Below are positions 1,063 to 21,279 of a DNA stretch of 32,473 bases, piece after piece. The stretch is taken from contig JADGHQ010000025.1 of assembly GCA_019683805.1 (NCBI GenBank), forward strand, positions 1 to 32,473. Reading direction: 5' to 3'. The translations under genes and the position numbers were made by a program. The notes under the pieces are model-generated. The model was not told where the DNA came from and made no database searches. It was given only the letters and a program-made list of their open reading frames with translations. The stretch comes from Thermoleophilaceae bacterium (GTDB taxonomy: Bacteria > Actinomycetota > Thermoleophilia > Solirubrobacterales > Thermoleophilaceae). Each line of letters begins with the position of its first letter. The first letter of the stretch is position 1.

Positions 1063-1070
1063 TTATCCCT

Positions 1071-1076
1071 CCTCCT
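1071..1076 (-). promoter_or_regulatory. Strong Shine-Dalgarno of the binding-protein gene
   Basis: AGGAGG followed by 8 bases and the ATG at 1062. It is the best ribosome-binding site in the importer operon, as expected for a binding protein made in excess over the membrane subunits. Confidence 0.8.
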
Positions 1077-1082
1077 AAGGCC

Positions 1083-6693: not shown

Positions 6694-7394
6694 GGGTCCT
6701 CGTCACCGGCGCGGCCGGGGGGATCGGGCTCGCCTGCGTGCGGCGCCTGGCGGTCGAGGGCGCCGCCGTGGCCGCCGCGGACCTGCGGCCGCCGCAGAAC
6801 GGCATCGCCGCGCTGGCGCTCGGCGGCGACGTGACCGACCCGGCGGACGCGGAGCGGCTGGTCGAGGAGGCCGCCGCGGGCCTTGGCGGCCTCGACGGCC
6901 TGGTGCTCGCGGCGGGCATCCACTGGACCGGCCCGACGCACGAGATGGACCCCGACGAGTTCCGGCGTGTGCTCGACGTGAGCGTGACGGGCACCTTCCT
7001 CTGCTGCCGAGCGGCGCTGCCGCGCTTCACGGCGCAGGGCTCGGGCCGGATCGTCACGCTCGGCTCGACGGCGTCGCTCGGCGGGGCGCCGGGGCTTGCG
7101 GCCTACAGCGCGGCGAAGGGGGCGGTGCTGAACCTCACCCGCTCGATCGCGGTCGAGTACGCGCGCGCGGGCGTGCGCGCTAACTGCCTCTGCCCGGGAT
7201 CGACGAACACGCCGCTGCTCGAGCGCCTGATGGCCGAGCGCGCGAACCCGGACGCGTTCCGCGAGAAGCACCCGATCGGCCGCTTCGCCGAGCCGGAGGA
7301 GATCGCGGCGGCGGCGGCGTTCCTGCTGTCGGACGAGGCCTCCTACTTCGTCGGCTCGCCCGTCGTGGTTGACGGTGGATTCACGGCCTCCTAA
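6672..7394 (+). CDS. Short-chain dehydrogenase/reductase (SDR 2)
   Basis: Second classical SDR in the operon, 240 residues. It has TGAAGGIG at 12-19, LAAG in place of the usual NNAG, Ser132, and the Tyr145/Lys149 pair in YSAAK, with the usual PGSTNTP and VVVDGGF patterns near the C-terminus. It overlaps the TIM-barrel gene by 22 bases (6672-6693), so the two are probably translated together. It is not a close duplicate of SDR 1, which argues for a different substrate in the same pathway. Confidence 0.9.
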   Translation: MRGLEGLRVLVTGAAGGIGLACVRRLAVEGAAVAAADLRPPQNGIAALALGGDVTDPADAERLVEEAAAGLGGLDGLVLAAGIHWTGPTHEMDPDEFRRVLDVSVTGTFLCCRAALPRFTAQGSGRIVTLGSTASLGGAPGLAAYSAAKGAVLNLTRSIAVEYARAGVRANCLCPGSTNTPLLERLMAERANPDAFREKHPIGRFAEPEEIAAAAAFLLSDEASYFVGSPVVVDGGFTAS

Positions 7395-7435
7395 ACTGGA
7401 CTGACGTCTAGCCAATGTCGGAGGAGGAAGCAGCG
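7395..7435 (+). promoter_or_regulatory. Intra-operon gap with Shine-Dalgarno and TGGACTGAC element
   Basis: This is the largest gap in the long operon. TGGACTGAC at 7397-7405 resembles the element seen at the other promoters in the window. GGAGGAGG at 7420-7427 sits 8 bases before ATG 7436. The spacing supports ATG 7436 rather than ATG 7415 as the E1 alpha start. An internal promoter is possible but no convincing -10/-35 pair was found. Confidence 0.45.
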
Positions 7436-8440
7436 ATGACCACAGCGGTCGACGGGCGCCTCGATCAGGAGACGCTCGTCGGGCTCTTCGAGCGGATGCT
7501 CCTCATCCGCCGGTTCGAGGAGCGCGCGTCGGAGTACCGTCTCGCCGGGCACATCCCCGGCTTCCTCCACCCGTGCATCGGGCAGGAGGCTGCGGCGGTC
7601 GGCACCTGCGCGGCGCTCGGCCCCGACGACGTGATCCTCTCCACCCACCGCGGGCACGGCCACATGCTCGCCCGCGGCGCCGATCCGGGCCGGATGTACG
7701 CGGAGCTGTACGCCCGCGTCGAGGGCTACAACCGCTCCAAGGGCGGCTCGCTGCACATGATCGACACCGACCTCGGCTTCCTCGGGGCCAACGGCATCGT
7801 GGGCGGCGGGATCCCGATCGCGGGCGGCGCGGCCCTCCAGCAGAAGCGGCGCGGCCAGGGGGGTGTCGCCGTCTCGTTCTTCGGCGACGGCGCCGCCAAC
7901 CAGGGCGCCTTCCACGAGGTGCTCAACCTCTGCTCGCTCTGGAAGCTGCCGGCGATCTTCGTCTGCGAGAACAACCTCTACGGCGAGTTCACGGCCCAGT
8001 CGGAGCAGTCGCCCGTGGCGGACGTCGCCGACCGCGCCGCGGCGTACGCGATGCCGGGCGTGATCGCCGACGGCAACGACGTGCTCGACGTGCGCGAGAA
8101 GGTGGCGCAGGCGGTCGCCCGCGCGCGGGCCGGCGAGGGCCCGACCCTCGTCGAGTGCAAGACCTACCGCCACCGCGGCCACTACGAGGGCGACATGTGC
8201 GCCTACCGGCCCGAGGGCGAGCTCGAGCAGTGGCTCGAGCGCGATCCGCTCGTCACGTTCCCCGCGCGGCTCGTCTCCGAGTTCGGCGTCCCGGAGGAGG
8301 AGATCGAGGCGGTGCGGGCGCAGGTCGAGCAGCGGCTCGACGAGGCGGCCGAGTTCGCGGCGGCCGGCACGTTCGCCGACCCGGCCGAGACGTTCGAGCA
8401 CGTGTACGTGGACAGCATCGAAGGAAAGGCGCTGCGATGA
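7436..8440 (+). CDS. 2-oxoacid dehydrogenase E1 component, alpha subunit (AcoA/PdhA-like)
   Basis: Thiamine-diphosphate-binding half of a heterotetrameric 2-oxoacid dehydrogenase; 334 residues from ATG 7436. It carries the ThDP/Mg motif from GDGAANQG to CENN about 30 residues later, the HIPGFLHPCIGQEA start and STHRGHGH typical of E1 alpha. Similarity in feel is to acetoin dehydrogenase and pyruvate dehydrogenase E1 alpha. An upstream in-frame ATG at 7415 would add seven residues but would place the strong Shine-Dalgarno inside the gene. The stop overlaps the beta subunit (ATGA at 8437-8440). The oxoacid decarboxylated cannot be told from the sequence. Confidence 0.92.
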   Translation: MTTAVDGRLDQETLVGLFERMLLIRRFEERASEYRLAGHIPGFLHPCIGQEAAAVGTCAALGPDDVILSTHRGHGHMLARGADPGRMYAELYARVEGYNRSKGGSLHMIDTDLGFLGANGIVGGGIPIAGGAALQQKRRGQGGVAVSFFGDGAANQGAFHEVLNLCSLWKLPAIFVCENNLYGEFTAQSEQSPVADVADRAAAYAMPGVIADGNDVLDVREKVAQAVARARAGEGPTLVECKTYRHRGHYEGDMCAYRPEGELEQWLERDPLVTFPARLVSEFGVPEEEIEAVRAQVEQRLDEAAEFAAAGTFADPAETFEHVYVDSIEGKALR

Positions 8441-9429
8441 AGCCCATCCGGTTCGCGCAGGCGATCACGCAGGCGCTCGACGAGGAGATGGCGCGCGACG
8501 AGCAGGTGATCCTGCTCGGCGAGGACATCGGCAAGCCGGGCGGCTCGTTCGGCATCACCAAGGGGCTGCTCGACAAGTACGGCGAGTCGCGCGTCTACGA
8601 CACGCCCATCTCGGAGGAGGCGATCGTCGGCGCCGCCCTGGGCGCCTCGATGATGGGCGCCCGGCCCGTCGTCGAGATCATGTTCAACGACTTCGCGGCC
8701 CTGGCGATGGACCAGATCGTCAACCAGGCCGCCAAGATCCACTACATGAGCGGCGGGCGGCTGTCGGCCCCGCTCGTGATCCGCATGCTCTGCGGCACGA
8801 ACGGCTCGACCGCCGGTCAGCATTCGCAGTCGCTCGAGGCGTGGTTCACCCACGTCCCGGGGCTGAAGGTGGTCGCCCCCTCGACGCCCGCGGACGCCAA
8901 GGCGTTCCTGAAGGCGGCCATCCGCGACCCCGACCCGGTGATGTTCTTCGAGCAGCGCATGCTCTACAACACCAAGGGCGAGGTGCCCGACGAGGTCGAG
9001 CCCGCGCGCCTGGCCGAGGGGAAGGTCGTGCGCGAGGGGAGCGACCTCACGATCGCCGCCTACATGAAGGGCGTCCACCAGGCGCTCGAGGCGGCGGAGA
9101 TCCTCGAGCGGGACGGCATCTCGGCCGAGGTCTGGGACGTGCGCAGCCTCGTCCCGTTCGACCGCGACGGCCTGCGGGCCTCGCTCGAGCGCACGGGCCG
9201 GCTGATGACCGTCCACGAGGCGGTGGTGCGCTCCGGCTTCGGGGCCGAGATCGCGGCGATCGCGGCCGAGGAGATGTTCGACCTGCTCAAGGCGCCCGTG
9301 CGCCGCGTCGGCGCGCACCCGACGCCGCACCCCTACGCGCCGCAGCTCGAGAGCACGATGCTGCCGAGCGTCGAGCGCATCGTCGAGACGGCGCGCGAGC
9401 TCGTCGGCGCGACGGAGAAGGTGGCCTGA
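8437..9429 (+). CDS. 2-oxoacid dehydrogenase E1 component, beta subunit (AcoB/PdhB-like)
   Basis: Partner of the E1 alpha subunit, 330 residues. It has the transketolase-type pyrimidine domain with GEDIG near 27-31, the cofactor-activating Glu in ISEEAIVG, and a C-terminal transketolase domain ending in GAHPTPHPYAPQLES. Translation is coupled to the alpha subunit by a four-base overlap. Two bases after its stop comes a free lipoyl domain rather than a complete E2. Confidence 0.93.
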   Translation: MKPIRFAQAITQALDEEMARDEQVILLGEDIGKPGGSFGITKGLLDKYGESRVYDTPISEEAIVGAALGASMMGARPVVEIMFNDFAALAMDQIVNQAAKIHYMSGGRLSAPLVIRMLCGTNGSTAGQHSQSLEAWFTHVPGLKVVAPSTPADAKAFLKAAIRDPDPVMFFEQRMLYNTKGEVPDEVEPARLAEGKVVREGSDLTIAAYMKGVHQALEAAEILERDGISAEVWDVRSLVPFDRDGLRASLERTGRLMTVHEAVVRSGFGAEIAAIAAEEMFDLLKAPVRRVGAHPTPHPYAPQLESTMLPSVERIVETARELVGATEKVA

Positions 9430-9431
9430 CG

Positions 9432-9710
9432 ATGGCTGAGATCGTGAAGATGCCCAAGTGGGGGCTGTCGATGGAGGAGGGGACGATCACCGAGTGGATG
9501 GTCGGCCCCGGCGAGGACGTCGCCCAGGGCGAGGTGCTCGCGATGGTCGAGTCCGAGAAGGCGCAGATGGAGCTTCCCTCCCCCGTGGGCGGGGTGTTCG
9601 CCAAGGCGCTCGTCGAGGAGGGGCAGACCGTGGAAGTCGGCACGGACGTCTGCGTGATCGCAGCCGATCGGGCCGAGTACGAGGCCGAGTTCGCGAGCGA
9701 GGCCGCCTGA
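9432..9710 (+). CDS. Free-standing lipoyl (biotinyl/lipoyl-attachment) domain protein
   Basis: A 92-residue protein consisting of one lipoyl domain. The start MAEIVKMPKWGLSMEEGTI is close to the lipoyl domain of acetoin dehydrogenase E2 (AcoC), and the predicted lipoylated residue is Lys43 in VESEKAQ. The usual E2 parts are absent: no peripheral-subunit-binding domain, no acyltransferase core and no hydrolase domain follow. It should shuttle the acyl group from the adjacent E1 to an acyltransferase encoded elsewhere. GcvH is unlikely because that protein is longer and has a different fold context. Confidence 0.88.
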   Translation: MAEIVKMPKWGLSMEEGTITEWMVGPGEDVAQGEVLAMVESEKAQMELPSPVGGVFAKALVEEGQTVEVGTDVCVIAADRAEYEAEFASEAA

Positions 9711-9904
9711 TGCCGGTCGTCATCGTCGAGCTCTGGGAAGGGCGCACGGTCGAGCAGAAGCGCGCCCTCTGCAAGGCGATCACCGACGCGATGGTCGAGC
9801 ACGCCGACGCGCGCCCCGACGCCCTGCACGTGATCATCCACGAGGTCTCGAAGGAGAACTGGGCGCGCGCTGGGGTCCTCGGCGTGGATCGGACGGACGT
9901 ATGA
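9710..9904 (+). CDS. 4-oxalocrotonate tautomerase family protein
   Basis: A 64-residue tautomerase-superfamily monomer, the normal 4-OT length. After Met removal the N-terminal residue is the catalytic Pro1. Arg11 is present in WEGR; the position of catalytic Arg39 holds His39, and the hydrophobic position 50 is Trp. These changes suggest a substrate different from 2-hydroxymuconate. Such enzymes ketonise enols or act on unsaturated acids. The ATG shares a base with the lipoyl gene stop, and the stop overlaps the next gene by ATGA. Confidence 0.85.
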   Translation: MPVVIVELWEGRTVEQKRALCKAITDAMVEHADARPDALHVIIHEVSKENWARAGVLGVDRTDV

Positions 9905-10899
9905 GCATCGCCGCGCTCGATCCGGCGCGCACCGCGCTGCTCGTCATCGACATGCAGAACGCCTTCGTCCACGACGAGGGCACGCTCGGGGCCTCCGGCG
10001 TCGACGTGAAGCCCGCCCAGGCGACGATCGCGCCTCACCGCAGGCTGATCGAGCGCTGCCGGGCCGCGGGGATGCCGGTGATCTGGACCCTCCAGGTCCA
10101 CCTGCCCGACGACGCGAGCCGGGCGCGCAAGCGCCTCGCCTCGCACACCGCCAAGCGCAAGCGCGTGAGCGCGCTCGCCGGCACCTGGGACGCGGAGATC
10201 GTCGACGAGCTGAAGGACCTCGCCGACGACCCGACCTACGTCGTCGTCAAGCACCGCTTCGGGGCGTTTCACGAGACCCGCCTCGACGCGCTGCTGCGGA
10301 TGCTCGGCGTGGAGGCGCTGCTCGTCACGGGCGTCACCGCCAACGCGTGCGTCGAGACGACGCTCCGCGAGGCGTACCTGCGCGACTACGACGTCGTCGC
10401 CGTCACCGACTGCATCGCCGCCGTGCGCCCCGAGTGGGAGCCGACCGCGCACGCCGTGTGGTCGCACTACCTCGGCGAGCTGGCCACCTCGCAGGAGGTC
10501 ATCGACTGGCTCGACGGCGCGGGCCGCGGCGCCGAGGTCGAGGGGCTCGCCCATCTGCTGCTGCAGACCACCGACATCGACGCGGCCGAGCGCTTCTACG
10601 TCGACCTGCTCGGCTTCAAGGTGCGCAAGCGGGAGCGGTTCCGCGACGGGCGCCCGCTCATCCTGACCGAGCAGCGCATGGGGATCACGAGCGGCCGCAA
10701 GCCCGGCGACGGCGCGAACTTCGACCACATCGCGTTCCACGTCCGCGGCCTCTCGGGGCTCGTCGAGCGCGCGCGGGCCGCCGGGGTGCGGGTGATCCGC
10801 GGGCCCGAGCCGAACGCGTACGGGCTGTCGGTCTATCTCGAGGACCCGGACGGCAACGAGGTCGAGCTCATCGGGCCCTCGGAGGAGGGAGGCAAGTGA
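9901..10899 (+). CDS. RutB/isochorismatase-like cysteine hydrolase fused to a VOC domain
   Basis: A 332-residue two-domain protein. Residues 1 to about 205 form an isochorismatase-like hydrolase with the complete triad Asp17 (VIDMQN), Lys117 (VVKHRFGAF) and Cys150 (TGVTANACVE). The pattern is closest to RutB ureidoacrylate amidohydrolase and N-carbamoylsarcosine amidase, which hydrolyse ureido/carbamoyl groups. From about 215 a glyoxalase-type VOC domain follows, with His in GLAHLLL, His in FDHIAFH and Glu in GNEVELIG as possible metal ligands. A single VOC module normally pairs with another copy. The fusion suggests substrate channelling or a regulatory/binding module; the reaction is not certain. 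Confidence 0.88.
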   Translation: MSIAALDPARTALLVIDMQNAFVHDEGTLGASGVDVKPAQATIAPHRRLIERCRAAGMPVIWTLQVHLPDDASRARKRLASHTAKRKRVSALAGTWDAEIVDELKDLADDPTYVVVKHRFGAFHETRLDALLRMLGVEALLVTGVTANACVETTLREAYLRDYDVVAVTDCIAAVRPEWEPTAHAVWSHYLGELATSQEVIDWLDGAGRGAEVEGLAHLLLQTTDIDAAERFYVDLLGFKVRKRERFRDGRPLILTEQRMGITSGRKPGDGANFDHIAFHVRGLSGLVERARAAGVRVIRGPEPNAYGLSVYLEDPDGNEVELIGPSEEGGK

Positions 10900-12020
10900 G
10901 CGAGCTGGCGGTCGGAGACGAGGTCCTCGCCAAGGTGCGGGAAGCGATGGGCGAGGCGGGGCTCGACGCGATCGTGCCCATGTCGCCCGAGAACCTGGCG
11001 TACGCGTCGGGCGCGGCGCCGCCGTCCCAGAAGACTGTGCGCTCGCGCCTGGCCGCCGCGATCATCCCCGCGGACGGCGCCGACACCGAGGTCGTGACCG
11101 TCAAGCTCGAGGCGCCGCTCGTGCGCTCGCAGTCCCGGCTCGACCGCGTCACCGCCTACGAGGAGTTCGTCGAGCACCCGATCGACGTGATCGCCGCCTC
11201 GCTGCGCGAGCGCGGGCTTGGGAGCGCCAGCATCGGCGTCGAGATCGGCTACCTCACACACGCCGACTACGAGCGCTTCCGCGAGGCGCTCCCCGACGCC
11301 GACCTGCGCCCCGTCGACGCGCTCTGGCAGGACCTGCGCATGCTCAAGACGGGCTCCGAGATCGACGCCATCCGCCACATCGGCCAGGCCGCGCAGCGGA
11401 TCACCGAGGAGTGCGTCAAGCTCGTCTCGGTCGGCTCGACGGAGCGCGAGCTGGGCAACCTCATCACCGAGCGCTACCACCAGGCGGGCGGCGACGCGCT
11501 CACGATGCTCGTGGTCGGCTCCGGCGAGCGCTCGGCGCACCTCAACGCGCCGCCGACCGACAGGGTCCTGCGGCCGGGCGACATCGTGCGCACCGACGTC
11601 ATCGGGACCGCCGGGCACTACTACTCCGACGTGGCGCGCACCGCGATCGTGGGCGAGCCGACGGCCGAGCAGCGCAAGGTCTACGGCCTGCTCTACGACG
11701 TCCACCGCCGCTGCCTCGAGGCGCTGCGGCCGGGCGCGATCAGCTCGGACATCTACGCGATCTACCACGACGCCATGACCGAGGCCGGGCTACCCGCGTA
11801 CCACTTCGTCGGGCACGGCCTGGGCGTGACCCTCCACGAGGAGCCGTTCATCAACCCGCTCACCTCGATCCCGCTCGAGGAGGGCATGGTGCTCTGCATC
11901 GAGCCGCTGACCTCAGTCGAGGGCGAGTTCGGCATGCAGATCGAGGACGAGGTCCTCATCACCGCCGATGGGTTCGAGCTCCTCACCGAAGCCAGCGACA
12001 TCCTGACGATCGGAGCCTGA
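10896..12020 (+). CDS. M24 metallopeptidase family protein (Xaa-Pro peptidase/creatinase-like)
   Basis: A 374-residue pita-bread protein with an N-terminal creatinase domain (about 1-150) and a C-terminal M24 domain. All five metal ligands of the peptidase form are present: Asp234, Asp245, His307, Glu336 and Glu350. True creatinases lack the metal centre, so this one should be metal-dependent and could cleave an Xaa-Pro or other C-N bond. GTG 10896 overlaps the previous stop (GTGA). Its place among hydrolases suggests cleavage of an amide intermediate rather than general peptide turnover, but that is inference. Confidence 0.88.
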   Translation: MSELAVGDEVLAKVREAMGEAGLDAIVPMSPENLAYASGAAPPSQKTVRSRLAAAIIPADGADTEVVTVKLEAPLVRSQSRLDRVTAYEEFVEHPIDVIAASLRERGLGSASIGVEIGYLTHADYERFREALPDADLRPVDALWQDLRMLKTGSEIDAIRHIGQAAQRITEECVKLVSVGSTERELGNLITERYHQAGGDALTMLVVGSGERSAHLNAPPTDRVLRPGDIVRTDVIGTAGHYYSDVARTAIVGEPTAEQRKVYGLLYDVHRRCLEALRPGAISSDIYAIYHDAMTEAGLPAYHFVGHGLGVTLHEEPFINPLTSIPLEEGMVLCIEPLTSVEGEFGMQIEDEVLITADGFELLTEASDILTIGA

Positions 12021-13199
12021 ATGAAGATCACCGGCGCGGAAGTGTTCCTCGTCGCGCTGCCCTCTCGGCGCGAGCACACCTGGGCCTCCAAGATGGAGAC
12101 CCCGATCGGCCACCACGCGATCGTGCGGCTCGACACCGACGAGGGCATCAGCGGCTGGGGCGAGTCGCCGGCGATCGCCACCTGGGGCGGCGCGCACATG
12201 CGCCAGTACGGTGAGACGCCCGTCACCGTGCGCCACCTCGTGCTCGACTACCTGCTGCCGGCGATCGAGGGGCTCGACCCGGCGGACATCGGCGTGATCC
12301 ACGAGCGCATGGACAAGGTCGTGAAGGGCAACCCCTACGCCAAGGCGGCGATCGACATCGCCTGTCACGACGCGGCCGGCAAGGCGCTCGGCGTGCCGGT
12401 CTGGCGGCTGCTGGGGGGCAAGCGCCGCGACGGCATCGAGGTCGCGCACTCGCTCGGGATCATGCCGGTCGAGCGATGCGTCGAGGAGGCCGAGCAGGCC
12501 GTCGCCGAGGGCGCGAAGACGATCAAGTGCAAGACCGGCCTCGACCCCGAGCGCGACGTCGCGCTGGTGCGCGCCCTGCGCGAGCGGCTCGGCGACGCGA
12601 TCAAGATCCGCGTCGACGGCAACGAGGGCTACCAGACGATCCACGAGGCGGTCACCGTCACGCGCGCCCAGGAGGAGCACGGCATCTTCCTCTGCGAGCA
12701 GCCGCTCGCCGGCGCGCACGCGCTCGCCGAGGTCGCCCGCCGCATCGACACGCCCGTGATGGCGGACGAGTCCGCCTGGACAGCGCTCGACATCCTCGAG
12801 CTGCACGAGCTGGGGGCGGCGCAGTGCTTCTCCTGCTACGTCACCAAGCCGGGCGGGCTGTGGCGCGCCCGCCAGCAGGCCGAGATCGCCGCCTCGCTCG
12901 GGATGTACTGCGACATCGGCGGCTCGATCGAGATGGGCATCGGCAACGCCGCGAACCTGCACCTCGGCGTGTCTCTTGAGCGCGCGATCCTGCCAAGCGT
13001 GTGCCCGGTCACGCGCATCGAGGGCGTCGACGGGCCGCGGATCGCGGGCGTCTATTACCTCGACGACATCATCGCCGAGCCGCTGCGCTTCGCCGACGGG
13101 CGGCTCCTCTGCCCCGACGGGCCCGGCCTCGGGGTCGAGGTCGACGAGGAGAAGCTCCGCCACTACGCGCTGGACCCGGCCGGCGCGGCGGCGCTCTGA
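12021..13199 (+). CDS. Enolase-superfamily enzyme, muconate cycloisomerase (MR/MLE) subgroup
   Basis: A 392-residue enolase-superfamily protein with capping domain and barrel. The acid-base Lys pair is Lys169-x-Lys171 (KCKTG), metal ligands are Asp199 (VDGNEGY), Glu226 (CEQPL) and Asp249 (ADES), and the opposite-face base is Lys276 (TKPGG). This KxK...K arrangement defines the MLE subgroup, which includes muconate cycloisomerase, N-succinylamino acid racemase, dipeptide epimerase and cis-3-hydroxyproline dehydratase. The reaction begins with proton abstraction alpha to a carboxylate. It abuts the M24 gene with no gap. Confidence 0.9.
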   Translation: MKITGAEVFLVALPSRREHTWASKMETPIGHHAIVRLDTDEGISGWGESPAIATWGGAHMRQYGETPVTVRHLVLDYLLPAIEGLDPADIGVIHERMDKVVKGNPYAKAAIDIACHDAAGKALGVPVWRLLGGKRRDGIEVAHSLGIMPVERCVEEAEQAVAEGAKTIKCKTGLDPERDVALVRALRERLGDAIKIRVDGNEGYQTIHEAVTVTRAQEEHGIFLCEQPLAGAHALAEVARRIDTPVMADESAWTALDILELHELGAAQCFSCYVTKPGGLWRARQQAEIAASLGMYCDIGGSIEMGIGNAANLHLGVSLERAILPSVCPVTRIEGVDGPRIAGVYYLDDIIAEPLRFADGRLLCPDGPGLGVEVDEEKLRHYALDPAGAAAL

Positions 13200-13200
13200 G

Positions 13201-14298
13201 ATGGCGACCGTCGCGATCCTCGGCGCGGGGGCGGGGGGCGCCGCGGCGGCCGTCGAGCTGACGGCGGCGGGGCACGCGGTCTCGCTGTGGAACCGCTCGC
13301 CGGCGACGCTCGAGCCCTTCCGCGCCGCCGGCGGCGTGCGGCACGCCGGAGCGCTCGGGCACGGCTTCACCGCGCTCGAGCGGATCACGCCGAGCCTGGC
13401 GGAGGCGCTCGAGGGCGCCGACGTCGCGCTCGTGTGCCTGCCCGCGCTCGCGCACGACGCGGTAGCGGACGCGCTGCTCGAGGCGCGCGCCGAGCTGCCC
13501 GTCGTCCTCAACCCCGGTCACACCGGCGGGGCGCTGCACCTCGCCGCGCGCATGGGCGCGGCGGCGCCCCCGCTCGCCGAGCTCTCGACGCTCACCTACG
13601 TCGCGCGCAAGCCCGAGCCGGACGCCGTGCGCGTGACCGGCGTCGCCGGCCGGGTGCGCGGCGCCTGCCTGCCTGGAGGCGAGACCGCGCTCGACTGGGC
13701 GTGCGAGCTCTACCCGTCGGTGAGGCGCGAGCGCGACGTGCTCGCGACCGGCCTCGCGAACGTCAACCTCGTCCTGCACCCGCCCGCGGCGGTGCTCGGC
13801 GCGGCCTGGGTCGAGGCCACCGGCGGCGCCTTCCGCTTCTACGCCGACGGCACGACGCCCGCCGTCGCGCGGGTGATCGCGGCGCTCGACGCAGAGCGGC
13901 TCGCGGTCGCGCGGGCGTTCGGCCACGAGCTCGACCCGCTGCTCGACGAGATGGCGGCGATCGGAACCGTCGAGCCGGGCGCCGCTGCGGAGGGCGACCT
14001 GCGCAGGGCGATCGCAGAGGGCGAGGCGAACCGCGTCATCCAGGCGCCGGGATCGCTGGCGCACCGGTACTACACGGAGGACTTCGGCTACGGCGTGCTG
14101 CCGTTCTGCGTGCTCGCGCAGATCGCCGGCGTGGAGACCCCGGTCGCGCGGGCGCTGCTCGAGCTGGCCGACACGCTCGTCGAGGGGGGCGTGGCCGCGG
14201 CGGGGCTCGACGCCGAGCGCCTCGGGCTCACCGGGCTCGACGCGGCCGGCGTGCTGGAGCGCGTGCGCGCCACTGCCGGGACTGGAGGTGGACGATGA
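13201..14298 (+). CDS. NAD/NADP octopine/nopaline (opine) dehydrogenase family protein
   Basis: A 365-residue protein with an N-terminal Rossmann domain (ILGAGAGGAAAAVEL, residues 5-19) and a helical C-terminal opine-dehydrogenase domain; the NVNLVLHPP stretch holds the conserved Asn/His region of that family. Family members reversibly form N-(carboxyalkyl)amino acids from an amino acid and a 2-oxo acid; in a catabolic operon the oxidative direction is plausible. One base separates it from the previous stop, and ATGA couples it to the DpaA homologue. The pairing of two imine-type oxidoreductases is notable. Confidence 0.82.
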   Translation: MATVAILGAGAGGAAAAVELTAAGHAVSLWNRSPATLEPFRAAGGVRHAGALGHGFTALERITPSLAEALEGADVALVCLPALAHDAVADALLEARAELPVVLNPGHTGGALHLAARMGAAAPPLAELSTLTYVARKPEPDAVRVTGVAGRVRGACLPGGETALDWACELYPSVRRERDVLATGLANVNLVLHPPAAVLGAAWVEATGGAFRFYADGTTPAVARVIAALDAERLAVARAFGHELDPLLDEMAAIGTVEPGAAAEGDLRRAIAEGEANRVIQAPGSLAHRYYTEDFGYGVLPFCVLAQIAGVETPVARALLELADTLVEGGVAAAGLDAERLGLTGLDAAGVLERVRATAGTGGGR

Positions 14299-15194
14299 CC
14301 GACTGGAGCTCGCTGCGGATCGCCGTCGTCGCGGGCGACGAGCGCGAGCGCGAGATCGCCCGGCGCGCGGCGACGACCGGCGCGCGGGTGCGCGCCTTCG
14401 GCTTCCCTTGGCCGTCCGGGGGCATCGAGGGCGTGACGCTCGCCGGGTCGGCCGCGGAGGCGCTCGAGGACGCCGACTACGCGCTCTTCCCGATCCCGGG
14501 CATCGCCGCCGACGGCAGCCTCTTCGCGCCCGAGCACCCCGAGCCGATCGTGCCGACCGCCGAGCTGCTGGGACGCATGGCGCCGGGCGCGGCGATCGTG
14601 CTCGGCCTCGCCGACGACGGCCTGCGCGCCGCCGCCGAGTCGCTTGGGATCGCGCTGCTCGAGTACGAGCACGACCGGGAGCTGATGCTCCTGCGCGCGC
14701 CCGCGATCGTCGAGGGCGCGATCCGCATCGCGATCGAGCACACCGACGTGACGATCCACGCGAGCGAGGTGGTGGTCGTCGGCTACGGGAACATCGGCGG
14801 GCTGCTCGCCAAGACGCTGCGCGCCCTCGGGGCCCAGGTGACGGTCGCGGCGCGTAACCCGGTCCAGCGCGCCGACGCCTACGCGATCGGCGCCCGGCCG
14901 CTGCCGCTCGCGGACCTGCCCGCGCACGCGGGGCGCTTCTCGATGGTCTTCTCGACCGTGCCGGCCCCAGTGGTCGGCTGCGAGGTGCTCGAGGCGCTGC
15001 CGCCCGGCTCGCTCGTGATGGACCTCGCGGCACCCCCGGGCGGCGTCGACCTCGAGCTGGCGCGCCGGCTCGGCCACCGCGCGGTCTGGGCCCGGGGGCT
15101 CGGCCGCCGCGCCCCCGTGACCGTCGGCGCCAGCCAGTGGTCGGGGATCCTTCGGCGCATCGAAGAACGCGAAGCAGGGAAGGGGAGCGCATGA
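14295..15194 (+). CDS. Dipicolinate synthase subunit A (DpaA/SpoVFA) homologue
   Basis: A 299-residue protein matching the length and architecture of Bacillus SpoVFA (about 297). Residues 7 to about 120 form the DpaA N-terminal domain (IAVVAGDERE start). The middle shows VEGAIRIAIEHTDVTIHAS, close to the SpoVFA segment at the same place. A Rossmann motif GYGNIG near 156-161 follows, then MDLAAPPGGVD and a C-terminal segment with APVTVGAS. In sporeformers DpaA works with the flavoprotein DpaB to oxidise a cyclic dihydrodipicolinate-type intermediate. No dpaB is in this window, so it may oxidise another cyclic imine. Coupled on both sides by ATGA. Confidence 0.8.
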   Translation: MTDWSSLRIAVVAGDEREREIARRAATTGARVRAFGFPWPSGGIEGVTLAGSAAEALEDADYALFPIPGIAADGSLFAPEHPEPIVPTAELLGRMAPGAAIVLGLADDGLRAAAESLGIALLEYEHDRELMLLRAPAIVEGAIRIAIEHTDVTIHASEVVVVGYGNIGGLLAKTLRALGAQVTVAARNPVQRADAYAIGARPLPLADLPAHAGRFSMVFSTVPAPVVGCEVLEALPPGSLVMDLAAPPGGVDLELARRLGHRAVWARGLGRRAPVTVGASQWSGILRRIEEREAGKGSA

Positions 15195-16549
15195 AAGCCG
15201 ATCTCGTCATCCGCAACGCCCGCGTCGTCACGCACGCGGGCGAGTTCCACGGCGGCGTGGCGGTCGAGGGCGAGCGCATCGTCGCCGTCGCCGCCGACGA
15301 CGCCCTGCCCAACGGCACGCGCGAGATCGACGCCGACGGGCTCGCGCTGCTGCCCGGCGTGATCGACCCGCACTGCCACCTCGGCGTGAACTACCCCTAC
15401 GACGAGGACATGCGCGACCAGACGGCCGCGGCCGCCAGCGGGGGGATAACGACGATCCTGCTCTACATCCGCAACAAGGCCGAGTCGTACATTCCGTTCT
15501 ACGAGGAGCGCCGCGCGGTCGGCGAGGAGAACGTCCACATCGACTTCGGCTTCCACTTCGGGATCCAGCGCGAGGAGCACGTGTACGAGATCCCGCGCAT
15601 CGTCGAGGAGACCGGGGTGCGGTCATTCAAGCTGTACTTCGGCTACGAGCCCGACAACCCGATCGGGATCGTGCCGGCCACGGATGGGTGGGTCTACGCG
15701 ACGATGCGCACGGTCGCGGGCATCCCCGGCGGGGTCGTGTCGGTGCACTGCGAGAACACGGGCATCGCCACCTGGCTCAAGGGGGAGCTGATGGCGACCG
15801 GCCGCCAGGACCTCGGCGCCTACACCGAGTCGCGCCCGGCGTTCTGCGAGGTCGAGACCGTCCAGCGCATGATCACGCTCGCGGAGCTCACCGGCTGCCC
15901 GCTCTACGTCGTCCACACCACCGCCGCCGGGGCGCCGCCGCTGGCCGAGCTCGCCCGCGCGCGCGGCGTCGACGTGACGATCGAGACCTGCCCGCACTAC
16001 CTCACGCGCACCTGCTACGACGAGGACCTCGACATGCGCGCGAAGATCTCGCCGCCGCTGCGCGACCGCAACGAGGTCGAGGGGCTTTGGCGGGCGATCT
16101 TCGCCGGGCAGGTGCGCTCGCTCGGCTCGGACCACGTCCCCTTCTTCCCCAAGAAGGGCGAGGACCTGTGGAAGGAGAAGCCGGGCATCGTCTCCTTCCC
16201 GTGGGAGCTTCCCCTGCTGATCACGGAGGGCGTGCACAAGCGCGGGCTGCCGCTGTCGCGGCTCGTCGAGATGAACTCCTACACGCCCGCCAGGCGCTTC
16301 GGGCTCTACCCGCGCAAGGGCGCGCTCCAGCCCGGCGCGGACGCCGATCTCGTGCTCGTCGACCTCGACGGCGAGCGGGAGGTCGTCCACGCTGGCAAGG
16401 GCACCTGCATCTACGAGGGGATGAAGCTGCGCGGCTGGCCGGTGCTGACGGTCGCGCGCGGGCGCGTCGTCTACGAGAACGGCGAGGTGGACCCGGACGC
16501 GGCCGGCCGCGGGCAGTGCGTCACGCGGCCCTCGGGCGTGCCGGCCTAG
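15191..16549 (+). CDS. Dihydropyrimidinase/hydantoinase-like amidohydrolase
   Basis: Metal-dependent cyclic amidohydrolase of 452 residues. All binuclear-site ligands are visible: His61-x-His63 (DPHCHLG), the Lys147 expected to be carboxylated (SFKLYFGY), His186 (VHCEN), His242 (VVHTT) and Asp314 (GSDHVPF). Members open cyclic imides or ureides such as dihydropyrimidines, hydantoins and allantoin. A usual strand-barrel amidohydrolase C-terminus (GALQPGADADLVLVD) is present. It is the last gene of the long operon and is coupled by ATGA to the DpaA homologue. Ring specificity is not predictable here. Confidence 0.92.
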   Translation: MKADLVIRNARVVTHAGEFHGGVAVEGERIVAVAADDALPNGTREIDADGLALLPGVIDPHCHLGVNYPYDEDMRDQTAAAASGGITTILLYIRNKAESYIPFYEERRAVGEENVHIDFGFHFGIQREEHVYEIPRIVEETGVRSFKLYFGYEPDNPIGIVPATDGWVYATMRTVAGIPGGVVSVHCENTGIATWLKGELMATGRQDLGAYTESRPAFCEVETVQRMITLAELTGCPLYVVHTTAAGAPPLAELARARGVDVTIETCPHYLTRTCYDEDLDMRAKISPPLRDRNEVEGLWRAIFAGQVRSLGSDHVPFFPKKGEDLWKEKPGIVSFPWELPLLITEGVHKRGLPLSRLVEMNSYTPARRFGLYPRKGALQPGADADLVLVDLDGEREVVHAGKGTCIYEGMKLRGWPVLTVARGRVVYENGEVDPDAAGRGQCVTRPSGVPA

Positions 16550-16674: not shown

Positions 16675-16698
16675 GTGCCGGCCGCTGCGGACCGGAAC

Positions 16699-17412
16699 AT
16701 GACCCAGCCATCCAACCATCGAGGCTTCTCGCGGCTCCAGCTCGTGTCGCGCTCCCAGCAGGTGCGCGACCAGCTCGAGCAGGCGATCCGCAGCGGCGAC
16801 TACGCCGTCGGCGACCGCCTGCCCTCCGAGCGCGAGCTCGCGCAGATGTTCGGCGTCAGCCGCGTCAGCGTGCGCGAGGCGCTGCGCTCCCTCGAGGCCG
16901 TCGGCCTGGTCGAGGTCAAGCACGGGGCGGGGACGATGGTCGTCGACCCCGCGCAGCGCGCGACGCGGGACCTGAGCCGCTGGATGAAGGCCAACCGGGG
17001 CGAGGTGCTCGAGCTCCTGCACGTGCGCTCCGCGCTCGACGAGCTCGCCGGCGAGGAGGCGGCGAACCGCCGCGACCCGGAGGAGATCGCCGCCGTGCGG
17101 CGCGCCCACGAGGCCTTCGCCGAGGCGGCGGAGGAGGGCCGCGCCGACCGGCTCGCGGACCTCGACACGGAGTTCCACCTCGCGATCGCGGCGGCGTCGG
17201 GTAGCGAGCTCCTGCGCAACCTGCTCGCCGAGCTGCACCACCACCTGGCGGAGTCGCGCGCGGTGTTCTTCGCGCCCGTGAACCGGGGCAAGGCGTCGGC
17301 CAGGGAGCACGGGACGATCGTCGCGGCGATCGAGCGGGGCGACGGCCCCGCGGCGCGCAAGGCGACCAGGGACCACATCGCCTCGGTGCGCAAGGTGATG
17401 GAGAGCGCCTGA
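16699..17412 (+). CDS. GntR-family transcriptional regulator, FadR/FCD subfamily (copy 2)
   Basis: A 237-residue paralogue of the regulator at 2860. The winged helix (QQVRDQLEQAI, RLPSERELAQMFGVSRVSVREA) is nearly identical to copy 1, so both probably recognise the same or overlapping DNA sites. The FCD ligand domain keeps Asp/His in LDTEFHLAI and His in REHGTIV and RDHIASV. ATG 16699 is preferred; GTG 16675 gives eight more residues but lies only four bases after the -10-like TACGCT. It converges on the minus-strand amidohydrolase with one base between the stops. Confidence 0.9.
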   Translation: MTQPSNHRGFSRLQLVSRSQQVRDQLEQAIRSGDYAVGDRLPSERELAQMFGVSRVSVREALRSLEAVGLVEVKHGAGTMVVDPAQRATRDLSRWMKANRGEVLELLHVRSALDELAGEEAANRRDPEEIAAVRRAHEAFAEAAEEGRADRLADLDTEFHLAIAAASGSELLRNLLAELHHHLAESRAVFFAPVNRGKASAREHGTIVAAIERGDGPAARKATRDHIASVRKVMESA

Positions 17413-17413
17413 C

Positions 17414-18550
17414 TCAGCCGCGGACGACCTGACGCGGCCCGGGGCGGCGCGCGAGCGCGTCCTGGAGCGAGTCCGCCGGCACGACCACGAGCTCGGCCGG
17501 GTCGCCGGGCTCCACGCCGCGCCGGCCGCCGCAGACGCCCGCGAGCAGCGCGGAGGGGTCGTCGAGCTGGGCGGCCACGCCCGCCAGCCAGGCCGCCTCG
17601 AGCGGGTCGGCGTCCCCGTAGGGGTAGAAGGCGTCGCGCACGTTGTCCGAGCCGAAGCGGACGGGCGCGCCGTCGGCCACGAGCTCGTGCACGAGCGTGA
17701 GCCCGCGCACGCGCGGCGTCCCGTTGCCGCGGCCCTGGAGGTAGAGGTTGAGCGCCGGCAGCACGACGATCGTGATGCCCGCGTCGGAGACCTTCTCGAC
17801 CACCCGGCGGGCGCGCACCCGCGGGAGCATCGCGAGCGCGCAGCAGTGGCCGGCGGTCACGCGGCCCTCCAGGCCGCGCGCCCGCGTCGCGTCCGCGAGG
17901 TGCTCGAGCCACGAGGCGTCCGGGTCGCAGTGCTCGTCGAGGTGGACGTCGACCGGCGCGCCGGTGTCGCGCGCGAGGTCGAGCAGCGCGTCGAGCGAGG
18001 CGGCCGGATCGGGGTTGAGGGCGACGAAGGCGCCGAGCACGTCCGCGCCGTCCTCGAGCGCGGCCGCGAGCGCGTCGCGGTTGCGGCGCTCGACCGGGTC
18101 TAGCTCGCGCGTCGCGAAGGCGACGATCTCGACCTCGAGCTCGCCGCCCATCCGCCTCGCCGCCGCGCGCACGGCGCGGCGGTCGCGCTTGCCGCCGTCC
18201 ATCGGCGAGTGGTCGACGTGGGTGCGCATGCGCACGGCGCCGTGCGCCGCCGCGCGGCGGAACAGCTCGAGCGCGCGCTCCTCCACCTCCTCGGGGGAGA
18301 AGGTCGCGCGCATGGCCTCGGTCATCTCGATCGCGTCGAGGAGGTCGCGCGGCACGCGCGGGATCGGCGCGAAGGCGCGGTCGCCGTGCGTGTGCGGCTC
18401 GTGGAACGCCGGCAGCACGAGCCGGCCCGACGGCGGCGCGGCCGAGCGCTCGACGGAGGCGACGCGACCGTTCTCGAGCCGGACGTCCCAGACGCCCTCG
18501 CGCCCGGGCAGCGCCACCGCCGCGAGCTCGCGCGCGCCGCCGCTACTCAT
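17414..18550 (-). CDS. Cytosine deaminase (CodA)-like amidohydrolase
   Basis: A 378-residue amidohydrolase-superfamily enzyme. Metal ligands and catalytic residues match the CodA pattern: His53-x-His55 (EPHTHGD), His203 with Glu206 in the HxxE motif (VHLDEH), His235 (AGHC) and Asp302 (GSDN). The LYLQGRG and RGLTLVHELV segments also follow CodA. Members deaminate cytosine, creatinine or isoguanine-type rings, or act on related cyclic amidines. It overlaps the upstream amidohydrolase by eight bases, so the two form one leftward unit. Creatinine or another amidine ring is possible but unproven. Confidence 0.88.
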   Translation of the reverse strand: MSSGGARELAAVALPGREGVWDVRLENGRVASVERSAAPPSGRLVLPAFHEPHTHGDRAFAPIPRVPRDLLDAIEMTEAMRATFSPEEVEERALELFRRAAAHGAVRMRTHVDHSPMDGGKRDRRAVRAAARRMGGELEVEIVAFATRELDPVERRNRDALAAALEDGADVLGAFVALNPDPAASLDALLDLARDTGAPVDVHLDEHCDPDASWLEHLADATRARGLEGRVTAGHCCALAMLPRVRARRVVEKVSDAGITIVVLPALNLYLQGRGNGTPRVRGLTLVHELVADGAPVRFGSDNVRDAFYPYGDADPLEAAWLAGVAAQLDDPSALLAGVCGGRRGVEPGDPAELVVVPADSLQDALARRPGPRQVVRG

Positions 18551-19982
18551 ACAGCGACGTCGTGACCGGCACGTCCCCGTGCAGGCCGGCGCGCTTGACG
18601 ATCGCCGCCGCCCGCTCGCGCGCCTCCGCGCGCAGCGCGGGCTCGTCGACGGTCACCACGCGGCCGTCGTGGTAGAGGCGCCGGCCGTCGACCCAGGTCT
18701 CGGCGATGCTCGCCGAGCTGACCGACCAGACGAGCGCCTGCAGCGGGTCGTGGAACGGCGCCCACTCGAAGTGGTCGAGGTCGAAGAGCACGAAGTCGGC
18801 CTTCTTGCCGGGCTCGAGCGAGCCGATCTCGTCGTCCCAGCCGAGCGCGCGCGCCCCCTCGATCGTCGCCATCCGCAGCGCCTTGCGGGCGCCGACGAGG
18901 TCGGCGTCGAGCCGCGCGTCCTTGAACAGCCCCGCGACGAGGTAGAGCTGGCGCATCAGGTTCATGTTGCCGGCGGCGGAGACCCCGTCGGTGCCGAGCC
19001 CGACGGTGACGCCGGCGTCGAGCAGCTCGGGGTACTTGCCGATGCAGGTCGCGCCCTTGGCGAGCTTGAGCGAGGTCGAGGGGCAGAACGCGACGCTCGT
19101 CCCGTGGCTTGCGAGCAGCCCGACCTCCTCGTCGTTGACCGCGACGGCGTGCGCGAGCACGAGGTTCGAGCCGAGGCCGTCGTGCTCGGCGATGCGGGTC
19201 ACGGGCCAGCGGCCGTAGCGGCGCTCCGAGATCTGGGACTCCTCGATGTTCGAGGCGATGTGGTAGGTGGTGCCCACTCCCAGCCGCTCCGCGAGCGCGC
19301 GCGCGCCGACGTGCAGCTCGAGCGTGCACGGCTCCTTGCCCTCGATGTTGACCCAGCAGCGGATGCGGCCGTCGGCGTAGCCGTCCCAGTCGCGCACGCA
19401 CTGCTCGAGGACCTCGAGCGCGACCTCGTGGTTGGGGAAGAAGTGGTGCTCGACCATCTCGTCCGACCACCCCGGCGGGATCTCCGCCGGCTTGTTGTCG
19501 GCGGCGTGGCGGCCCGTGATGCCGCGGATGCCCGTCTCGGCCGCGGCGCGCGCGGTGACGCCCGGGTCGTTCTGGGCGCCCATGTCGAGGAAGCAGGTCG
19601 TGCCGCAGCGCAGCATCTCGGTGGTGCCGAGCGAGACGCTGACGCTCTCGTCCGACTCGCTGACGTGCGCGTAGAACGGCTTGGCCCAGTGGAACACCCA
19701 CGCGCGGGTCGCGAGGTTGTCCGGGAACACCGCGCGCGAGAGCGTCTCCGAGAGGTGCACGTGGGTGTCGACGAAGCCGGGCGTGACGCCCAGGCGCCTG
19801 GCGTCGCGCACCTCGTCGCGCTCGCTCGGCGGGTGCTCGGCGAGGACCTCGTCGGAGGGCCCGATGGCGAGGATGCGGTCGCGCTCGATGACCAGCGTGG
19901 CGTCGCGCAGCTGGCGGTCGTCGGCGTCGGCGGTGAGCGCCCAGTCCAGGTGGGTGAAGTACGTCCGTCCCGTAGTGGTCAT
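18543..19982 (-). CDS. Amidohydrolase, TrzA/SAH-deaminase-like (ATZ/TRZ family)
   Basis: A 479-residue amidohydrolase of the chlorohydrolase/S-adenosylhomocysteine deaminase group. Ligands are His74-x-His76 (DTHVHLS), His241, His278 (LAHAV) and Asp332 (GTDGVSAAGNMN). The residue three after His241 is Ser244, where deaminases of this group usually carry a catalytic Glu, so the chemistry may differ. The ATG at 19982 was chosen over an upstream extension to 20120 because the extra sequence is low-complexity and holds the promoter; the protein then begins MTTTGRTYF. The gene is nearly leaderless. Confidence 0.88.
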   Translation of the reverse strand: MTTTGRTYFTHLDWALTADADDRQLRDATLVIERDRILAIGPSDEVLAEHPPSERDEVRDARRLGVTPGFVDTHVHLSETLSRAVFPDNLATRAWVFHWAKPFYAHVSESDESVSVSLGTTEMLRCGTTCFLDMGAQNDPGVTARAAAETGIRGITGRHAADNKPAEIPPGWSDEMVEHHFFPNHEVALEVLEQCVRDWDGYADGRIRCWVNIEGKEPCTLELHVGARALAERLGVGTTYHIASNIEESQISERRYGRWPVTRIAEHDGLGSNLVLAHAVAVNDEEVGLLASHGTSVAFCPSTSLKLAKGATCIGKYPELLDAGVTVGLGTDGVSAAGNMNLMRQLYLVAGLFKDARLDADLVGARKALRMATIEGARALGWDDEIGSLEPGKKADFVLFDLDHFEWAPFHDPLQALVWSVSSASIAETWVDGRRLYHDGRVVTVDEPALRAEARERAAAIVKRAGLHGDVPVTTSLYE

Positions 19983-19994
19983 ACGACTGACCAC
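19975..19994 (-). promoter_or_regulatory. 20-bp palindrome (operator) over the amidohydrolase start
   Basis: A perfect inverted repeat GTGGTCA-N6-TGACCAC covers the last bases of the -10 box and the start codon of the minus-strand amidohydrolase at 19982. Its arms carry the TGGTCA core seen at the gntR promoters. Its placement would block both transcription and start-codon access when bound. Confidence 0.7.
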
Positions 19995-20021
19995 ATTACT
20001 CTTCTGGGGACCTGGGGTCAA
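19993..20021 (-). promoter_or_regulatory. Sigma-70-type promoter of the minus-strand amidohydrolase operon
   Basis: On the complement, TTGACC (20016-20021) and TAATGT (19993-19998) are separated by exactly 17 bases. Ten bases lie between the -10 and the ATG at 19982, so the transcript should have a leader of only a few bases. No Shine-Dalgarno is present. Confidence 0.7.
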
Positions 20022-20071
20022 GGCTGGCTGGCGGCCGGGGTCAAGGACGGCGGGCAGCCTGGGGGCGAGGA

Positions 20072-20110
20072 TGGCCGACGGCCGGGCGGGCGAGGGATTG
20101 GCCGACGGCC
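20072..20110. repeat. Two 12-bp direct repeats, each a small palindrome
   Basis: TGGCCGACGGCC occurs at 20072-20083 and again at 20099-20110, 27 bases start to start. Each copy contains GGCCG-A-CGGCC. The second ends three bases before the TTGACA of the gcvT promoter. The spacing suits paired binding of an activator, but chance in GC-rich DNA cannot be excluded. Confidence 0.45.
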
Positions 20111-20113
20111 AAG

Positions 20114-20149
20114 TTGACACGTGGACTGTGGTCTGACAACCTACCGCTC
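20114..20149 (+). promoter_or_regulatory. Promoter of the glycine cleavage operon
   Basis: A perfect -35 TTGACA (20114-20119) is followed 17 bases later by CAACCT (20137-20142), with TGA before it as an extended -10. Seven bases then lead to GTG 20150, predicting a leaderless transcript. Between the boxes lie tandem TGGACTG (20122-20128) and TGGTCTG (20129-20135), the shared element. No glycine riboswitch can fit, as no leader exists. Confidence 0.55.
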
Positions 20150-21223: not shown

Positions 21224-21279
21224 CGAGAGAGCCGCGCAGCCCGTCCGAGGTCCCGAGCCGATGCGGGGGCGCGCGATGA
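21220..21279 (+). CDS. 19-residue mini-ORF coupling gcvT to glyA
   Basis: An open frame of 19 codons ([19 protein letters not shown]). Its ATG overlaps the gcvT stop (ATGA at 21220-21223) and follows AAGGAGGAGG at 21203-21212 by seven bases. Its stop overlaps the preferred glyA start (ATGA at 21276-21279). This geometry fits a coupling or leader peptide. However, the Shine-Dalgarno also encodes Lys-Glu-Glu of GcvT, so chance is possible. Confidence 0.35.

What the first reader, a model, noticed from the sequence alone, without database searches (positions are those of the whole stretch)
14295..15194. DpaA/SpoVFA homologue without DpaB in a catabolic operon
The protein matches the length, the IEHTDVTIHAS-type core and the GxGNxG Rossmann motif of sporulation dipicolinate synthase subunit A. 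No DpaB flavoprotein or other sporulation gene is near; instead it is coupled to an opine-dehydrogenase-like and a hydantoinase-like gene. It may be an oxidoreductase for another cyclic imine.
Basis: partly seen in the sequence, partly recalled or inferred. Interest (0 to 1): 0.72.

Follow-up and report, generated by a model that had tools for sequence, protein, structure and literature searches.

The report
Spore-enzyme relative in catabolic gene cluster
A protein closely shaped like the enzyme subunit that makes the spore compound dipicolinic acid is here, and in bacteria of at least four phyla, part of a conserved and apparently undescribed gene cluster that looks built to break down a nitrogen-containing ring compound, so its usual database name is probably wrong.

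Summary
Confirmed. Window 14295-15194 (+) encodes a full-length DpaA (SpoVFA) homologue: DpaA_N over its Pfam cut-off, both NCBIfam DpaA equivalogs as top hits but below their cut-offs, and an AlphaFold model whose best PDB matches are the two solved DpaA structures. It overlaps an opine-dehydrogenase-like and a hydantoinase-like gene by 4 bp each. The genome (95% complete) has neither dpaB nor spo0A.

The context is no local accident. The same DpaA clade sits beside the same enzymes in about 70 loci from Actinomycetota, Pseudomonadota, Verrucomicrobiota and Chloroflexota, some on Shinella/Aminobacter plasmids, and the genes diverge together. A core (DpaA, opine dehydrogenase, muconate-cycloisomerase-like enzyme, M24 hydrolase, 4-OT tautomerase, VOC protein) carries either hydantoinase plus isochorismatase-type amidase or a molybdenum hydroxylase. 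All 19 carrier genomes tested lack dpaB. Residues around the DpaA hinge differ consistently from sporulation DpaA.

Best reading: a stand-alone NADP(H) oxidoreductase for a cyclic imine or dihydro-N-heterocycle acid in N-heterocycle degradation. Substrate unknown; no activity measured. I found no paper on the cluster in the open-access library searched. RefSeq names close homologues "dipicolinate synthase subunit DpsA", probably a mis-annotation.

The parts
14295..15194 (+). DpaA/SpoVFA-like NADP(H)-type oxidoreductase, 299 aa (the finding)
13201..14298 (+). Opine-dehydrogenase-like protein (PF02317), 4-bp overlap with DpaA; nearest solved structure 1bg6, N-(1-D-carboxylethyl)-L-norvaline dehydrogenase
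15191..16549 (+). Hydantoinase/dihydropyrimidinase-like amidohydrolase, 4-bp overlap with DpaA; nearest solved structure 1gkr, L-selective hydantoinase; metal-ligand motifs present by reading
12021..13199 (+). Enolase-superfamily (MR/MLE) protein, muconate-cycloisomerase / N-acylamino-acid-racemase-like
10896..12020 (+). M24 creatinase/prolidase-like hydrolase
9901..10899 (+). Isochorismatase-type amidase (RutB / N-carbamoylsarcosine-amidase-like) fused to a VOC/glyoxalase domain
   Evidence: full-length fusion found on plasmids only in the 14 non-Bacillota records that carry DpaA
9710..9904 (+). 4-oxalocrotonate-tautomerase-like protein, 64 aa, Pro after Met
18543..20120 (-). TRZ/ATZ-type amidohydrolase (deaminase-like); 68% identical to the Shinella cluster copy
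17414..18550 (-). Cytosine-deaminase-like amidohydrolase
16675..17412 (+). GntR/FCD regulator
2860..3627 (+). Second GntR-family regulator, 50% identical to the one at 16675
64..2758 (-). ABC transporter: NMT1/THI5-like binding protein (64-1062), permease (1083-1940), ATPase (1937-2758)
3624..5111 (+). Aldehyde dehydrogenase
5108..7394 (+). SDR oxidoreductase (about 5108-5881), hydroxypyruvate-isomerase-like TIM barrel by reading (5881-6693), second SDR (about 6672-7394); exact starts not determined
7415..9710 (+). 2-oxoacid dehydrogenase E1 alpha (7415-8440), E1 beta (8437-9429), lipoyl-domain protein (9432-9710)
   Evidence: E1 proteins shared with L033-L035

Best explanation
The gene encodes a DpaA-fold NADP(H)-dependent oxidoreductase that works without the DpaB flavoprotein, as one step of a catabolic pathway for a nitrogen-containing ring compound. 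Shown by computation: homology and fold, operon coupling, conservation of the cluster across phyla, and absence of dpaB. Inferred: an NMT1-type ABC transporter imports the compound; TRZ- and cytosine-deaminase-like enzymes remove exocyclic amino groups; the hydantoinase opens a cyclic ureide or imide and the isochorismatase-type amidase cleaves the product; in some lineages a molybdenum hydroxylase takes the place of the hydantoinase/amidase part. The core enzymes (MR/MLE, M24, opine dehydrogenase, DpaA, 4-OT, VOC) process a shared intermediate. Most likely DpaA moves hydride to or from a cyclic imine or dihydro-N-heterocycle carboxylate, the chemistry nearest its sporulation relative, and the opine dehydrogenase acts on a related C-N bond. 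Substrate and direction are not known.
For: Full-length DpaA homology and fold. ODH-DpaA adjacent in 53 loci and DpaA-HYD in 53, mostly with 4-bp overlaps. Of 74 loci scanned (one contig counted twice) 4-OT is in 65, ODH 61, MR/MLE 57, isochorismatase-VOC 55, HYD 53, M24 52, TRZ 47, ABC parts about 45, from Actinomycetota, Pseudomonadota, Verrucomicrobiota and Chloroflexota. DpaA distances correlate with those of partner genes (Spearman 0.76-0.94, 0/300 permutations). Hydantoinase and isochorismatase domain occur together (50 both, 11 neither, 2 amidase only, 0 hydantoinase only); a Mo hydroxylase is near in 9 of 13 scored loci without hydantoinase against 2 of 52 with it. dpaB over cut-off in 0 of 19 carrier genomes, with B. 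subtilis as positive control. R187 after the second Rossmann strand is shared with sporulation DpaA, as expected for NADP. Consistent changes from four sporulation DpaA: R to D127, N to R134, T or M to I138, K/R/C to P247, and S280-Q281-W282.
Against: No substrate, product, expression or activity data exist. That the changed residues line the active site is inferred from their position around the domain hinge and nucleotide site; no ligand-bound structure was inspected. Opitutales loci carry the core without hydantoinase or M24, so the exact pathway differs or is split. The correlation of distances is partly due to species relatedness. The hydantoinase/amidase/Mo-hydroxylase pattern rests on only 3 or 4 independent comparisons (not significant). 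The opine dehydrogenase is not next to DpaA in several loci.
Confidence: 0.55

Rival explanations
1. DpaA acts as a reductase that dearomatises or partly reduces the N-heterocycle, making the dihydro ring that the coupled hydantoinase then opens, as in reductive pyrimidine breakdown but with DpaA in the place of dihydropyrimidine dehydrogenase.
For: DpaA and HYD overlap by 4 bp in most loci; HYD belongs to the dihydropyrimidinase/hydantoinase family and the amidase resembles RutB.
Against: DpaA is kept in 11 scored loci without HYD and amidase, so its step does not depend on the hydantoinase; a pyridine-nucleotide enzyme without flavin rarely reduces an aromatic ring (general knowledge).
Confidence: 0.2
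2. DpaA and the opine dehydrogenase form one complex or a direct relay, the opine dehydrogenase taking the structural place of DpaB.
For: Adjacent, usually overlapping, in 53 loci, much as dpaB adjoins dpaA in Bacillota.
Against: ODH is far from DpaA or only weakly conserved in several loci (L046, L049, L053, L056, L062, L070, L071, L102); the two partners belong to different families (PF02317 against flavoprotein); the complex was not modelled.
Confidence: 0.1
3. It is a genuine dipicolinate synthase subunit working with another flavoprotein, and the organism makes dipicolinate.
For: Fold and full-length similarity; RefSeq labels relatives 'dipicolinate synthase subunit DpsA'; EtfA can replace DpaAB in some clostridia (PMC3533761).
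Against: No dpaB in the own genome or 19 carriers, no Spo0A in the own genome; both B. subtilis subunits are needed (PMC9024752); scores under both NCBIfam equivalog cut-offs; consistent residue changes; catabolic context in all loci examined.
Confidence: 0.05
4. The DpaA-like protein has lost catalysis and is a structural or regulatory subunit of the neighbouring enzymes.
For: Residues near the presumed active site differ from sporulation DpaA.
Against: The Rossmann motif, R187 and about 60 columns in all are invariant in 47 sequences, including polar residues new to this clade (E123, D127, R134, S280, Q281), which suggests changed rather than lost catalysis.
Confidence: 0.1

Closest known systems
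Dipicolinate synthase subunit A (DpaA/SpoVFA; PF16924, TIGR02853, PRK08306; PDB 2rir, 3d4o)
   Same: Full-length homology (31% identity over 277 aligned positions to Bacillus velezensis DpaA), same two-domain fold, same GGDxR and NADP-type Rossmann motifs
   Different: No DpaB, no sporulation genes, catabolic operon, separate clade, changed residues at positions 127, 134, 138, 247, 280-282
Hydantoin/dihydropyrimidine utilisation clusters (hyu, rut/pyd type)
   Same: Hydantoinase-family amidohydrolase with an amidase of the RutB/N-carbamoylsarcosine amidase family and an NMT1-type ABC transporter
   Different: Amidase is isochorismatase-type fused to a VOC domain; DpaA, opine dehydrogenase, MR/MLE, M24 and 4-OT are added; the paper read on Aminobacter hydantoinases (PMC3546935) describes hydantoinases in other gene arrangements
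Opine dehydrogenase (CENDH, PDB 1bg6; PF02317)
   Same: Neighbour gene 13201-14298 matches over its full length (E 5.5e-45)
   Different: No opine transport or catabolism genes recognised; substrate unknown
S-adenosylhomocysteine hydrolase / alanine dehydrogenase / transhydrogenase domain I fold group
   Same: Same overall fold (Z about 20-21), Rossmann domain similarity
   Different: Clearly more distant than DpaA (Z 28-31)

Membership tests
DpaA superfamily (PF16924 N-terminal domain plus Rossmann domain) | DpaA_N match over the gathering cut-off | tested here: met
   71.7 bits against 29.2
DpaA superfamily (PF16924 N-terminal domain plus Rossmann domain) | DpaA two-domain fold | tested here: met
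   Model Z 30.9 to 3d4o (rmsd 3.1, 288 aligned) and 28.1 to 2rir, next structure 21.5
Sporulation dipicolinate synthase subunit A (equivalog) | Score over NCBIfam equivalog cut-off | tested here: not met
   220 against 261 (PRK08306) and 195.9 against 319.65 (TIGR02853)
Sporulation dipicolinate synthase subunit A (equivalog) | DpaB partner gene | tested here: not met
   No dpaB in own genome, in 19 carrier genomes or near any locus; control B. subtilis positive
Sporulation dipicolinate synthase subunit A (equivalog) | Sporulating host (Spo0A present) | tested here: not met
   No Spo0A_C match in own genome
Sporulation dipicolinate synthase subunit A (equivalog) | Converts HTPA to dipicolinate | not testable with these tools
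   Needs an enzyme assay
Sporulation dipicolinate synthase subunit A (equivalog) | Groups with sporulation DpaA in a tree | tested here: not met
   70 catabolic rows are one side of a branch (SH-aLRT 96), 4 sporulation rows another (96); only four sporulation sequences, quick method, long branches
Hydantoin utilisation cluster | Hydantoinase plus N-carbamoyl amidase side by side | tested here: inconclusive
   HYD and an isochorismatase-type amidase share the operon; 50 loci with both, none with HYD alone; that the amidase acts on N-carbamoyl compounds is inferred from relatives only
Hydantoin utilisation cluster | Growth on or hydrolysis of hydantoins | not testable with these tools
   Needs an assay

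The most novel reading that the evidence does not exclude
A previously undescribed catabolic pathway for a widespread N-heterocycle, spread between phyla as a modular gene cluster, in which a DpaA-fold enzyme freed from DpaB performs a new redox reaction on a cyclic intermediate in concert with an opine dehydrogenase, with two interchangeable entry modules (hydantoinase/amidase or molybdenum hydroxylase).
Probability: 0.4. Interest if true: 0.75.

Novelty: new variant of a known kind. Interest (0 to 1): 0.6.

Why it matters
DpaA is treated as a sporulation enzyme and has been used as a marker of it. This shows a sister clade, rare outside Bacillota (about 1% or less of sampled Actinomycetota and Pseudomonadota genomes), tied to catabolism, so 'dipicolinate synthase subunit DpsA' labels outside Bacillota are likely wrong. 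The cluster is in cultivable strains (Shinella, Aminobacter, Bradyrhizobium, Actinomadura), so the pathway can be found by induction and knockout, and the DpaA reaction could help to separate what DpaA does from what DpaB does.

Tried and rejected
Chance or frame artefact: rejected (conserved at 82% in L040, fold match). A dpaB elsewhere in the genome: not found; the PF02441 hit is a 431-aa ORF, whose length suggests CoaBC. Literature: seven searches for DpaA with opine dehydrogenase, hydantoinase, mandelate racemase or isochorismatase, for DpaA outside sporulation, or for the Aminobacter plasmids found no description of this cluster; one for a reductive heterocycle route with enamidase found nothing; the MSH1 plasmid paper does not mention it. 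The library is open access only. Known pathways considered and not adopted: creatinine (a creatinase-like M24, a deaminase and an N-carbamoylsarcosine-amidase-like enzyme are present, but the hydantoinase is not the ATP-dependent type and DpaA/ODH/MR-MLE stay unexplained), ectoine (M24 far below the DoeA cut-offs), reductive nicotinate and pterin degradation (no diagnostic genes recognised), opine catabolism. Bacillota DpaA could not be sampled widely because no genome handle was available, so only four sporulation sequences with dpaB beside them were used.

Full report
Observation. The ORF at 14295-15194 (+) is real and full length (299 aa). It scores 71.7 bits to Pfam DpaA_N (cut-off 29.2) and its best NCBIfam models are the two DpaA equivalogs, along nearly their whole length but under their cut-offs (220 of 261, 195.9 of 319.65). 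The profile of its clade finds the two solved DpaA structures first (2rir, 3d4o), and the AlphaFold model (pLDDT 91) matches them at Z 30.9 and 28.1, well above the next fold relatives, transhydrogenase domain I and adenosylhomocysteinase, at about 21. The clade profile aligns 277 columns of Bacillus velezensis DpaA at 31% identity.

Own genome. The window is a whole contig of a 2.56 Mb, 95% complete genome. Its order includes a Solirubrobacteraceae MAG (L040, the same contig as L029) that carries an 82% identical copy beside the same hydantoinase, GntR, cytosine-deaminase-like and TRZ genes. DpaA_N is in 1 of 31 genomes of the own family and over the cut-off in 5 of 396 sampled genomes of the phylum. 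No dpaB: the only PF02441 flavoprotein is a 431-aa ORF, whose length suggests CoaBC. No Spo0A.

Neighbourhood. Along the + strand: 4-OT, isochorismatase-VOC fusion, M24, MR/MLE, opine-dehydrogenase-like, DpaA, hydantoinase-like, GntR; then on the - strand cytosine-deaminase-like and TRZ/ATZ-type amidohydrolases. Upstream lie an aldehyde dehydrogenase, two SDRs, a TIM-barrel protein that by reading resembles hydroxypyruvate isomerase, 2-oxoacid dehydrogenase E1 subunits with a lipoyl protein, a GntR regulator and an NMT1-type ABC transporter. The opine dehydrogenase, DpaA and hydantoinase genes overlap by 4 bp each. Nearest solved structures by sequence: CENDH opine dehydrogenase 1bg6, L-hydantoinase 1gkr, an uncharacterised isochorismatase (3kl2), then RutB and an N-carbamoylsarcosine-amidase relative, MTA/SAH deaminase, and MR/MLE-family 2p88. 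Reading the translations, the expected metal-ligand or catalytic motifs are present in these enzymes.

The cluster elsewhere. All 14 non-Bacillota DpaA on plasmids (Aminobacter, Shinella, Phyllobacterium) are 56-59% identical to the window protein; the four regions opened lie in the same cluster, and all four Bacillota plasmid DpaA have dpaB next to them. The full-length isochorismatase-VOC fusion occurs on plasmids in just those 14 records. A scan of one genome per species gave 63 loci, among them Actinomycetota, alpha- and betaproteobacteria, Opitutales and Chloroflexi (the search patterns were taken from this clade, so it shows close relatives only). Of 74 loci scanned, 4-OT is in 65, opine dehydrogenase in 61, MR/MLE in 57, isochorismatase-VOC in 55, hydantoinase in 53, M24 in 52, TRZ in 47 and ABC parts in about 45; many loci are cut by contig ends, so these are lower bounds. 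ODH-DpaA and DpaA-HYD are each adjacent in 53 loci, mostly with the 4-bp overlap. Pairwise distances of DpaA follow those of the partners (Spearman 0.76 to 0.94, 0 of 300 permutations), partly because of species relatedness. dpaB is over cut-off in 0 of 19 carrier genomes searched whole.

Modularity. Where the hydantoinase is missing, the isochorismatase domain is nearly always missing too while the VOC domain stays, and a CoxL/XDH-type molybdenum hydroxylase is often near. Scored loci: hydantoinase and isochorismatase both present 50, both absent 11, isochorismatase alone 2, hydantoinase alone 0. On the tree this rests on 3 or 4 independent comparisons, so it is a pattern and not a statistical proof. 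It suggests a core (DpaA, opine dehydrogenase, MR/MLE, M24, 4-OT, VOC) fed by two alternative entry modules.

Tree and residues. Seventy cluster DpaA proteins lie on one side of a supported branch and the four sporulation proteins on another (96 each); the window protein groups with L040 (100) and near Actinomadura. More distant relatives at 35-39% identity (L030, L032) also lie with NMT1-type transporters and M24/isochorismatase or amidohydrolase genes. Against the sporulation sequences the cluster clade has fixed or nearly fixed changes: R to D127, N to R134, T or M to I138, K/R/C to P247 and a new SQW at 280-282, while the Rossmann glycines and R187 are shared. By their place around the domain hinge and the nucleotide site these are likely to shape the substrate pocket; this is inference.

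Mechanism. I take it as a stand-alone NADP(H) oxidoreductase acting on a cyclic imine or dihydro-N-heterocycle acid within breakdown of a nitrogen heterocycle. Both B. subtilis subunits are needed for dipicolinate (PMC9024752), so a clade in which DpaB was never found is unlikely to make it. What the pathway degrades cannot be read from sequence alone; the amidohydrolases and amidase point to a compound with exocyclic amino and ureide or imide nitrogen, the Mo hydroxylase variant to a heteroaromatic ring.

Novelty. The fold family is known. The DpaB-free catabolic clade and its conserved cluster were not found in the papers searched. RefSeq names the close homologues 'dipicolinate synthase subunit DpsA', probably wrongly.

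Noticed in passing
L036:12225-12908 and 38 further loci (not in the window): A conserved 200-230 aa protein between hydantoinase and 4-OT in proteobacterial clusters, labelled 'hypothetical' or 'resolvase', has no Pfam match, but its AlphaFold model resembles phytanoyl-CoA-dioxygenase-type Fe/2OG enzymes (Z 10.7 to SyrB2, rmsd 4.4, 168 aligned). By reading it lacks a clear HxD motif, so it may be a degenerate oxygenase.
   Followed up: partly
window 20144-23887: Genes read as glycine-cleavage T protein, serine hydroxymethyltransferase and glycine dehydrogenase subunit 1 follow the cluster; a similar glycine dehydrogenase lies near the 39% identical DpaA in L030. Glycine or glyoxylate could be a product; Aminobacter clusters contain malate synthase G.
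   Followed up: no
L030:8824-10358 and L032:9337-10209: Divergent DpaA-like proteins (35-39% identity) in other Actinomycetota also sit with NMT1-type ABC transporters, GntR regulators and M24/isochorismatase or amidohydrolase genes, suggesting further non-sporulation DpaA groups.
   Followed up: partly
L114 (G706:C75): A further weak DpaA_N hit (29.1 bits, 29.6 with its neighbours in the frame) in a sampled Pseudomonadota genome; context not examined.
   Followed up: no
window 9901-10899: Isochorismatase-type amidase fused to a VOC/glyoxalase domain; the VOC domain occurs alone where the hydantoinase is absent, so the fusion joins a core and a module function.
   Followed up: yes
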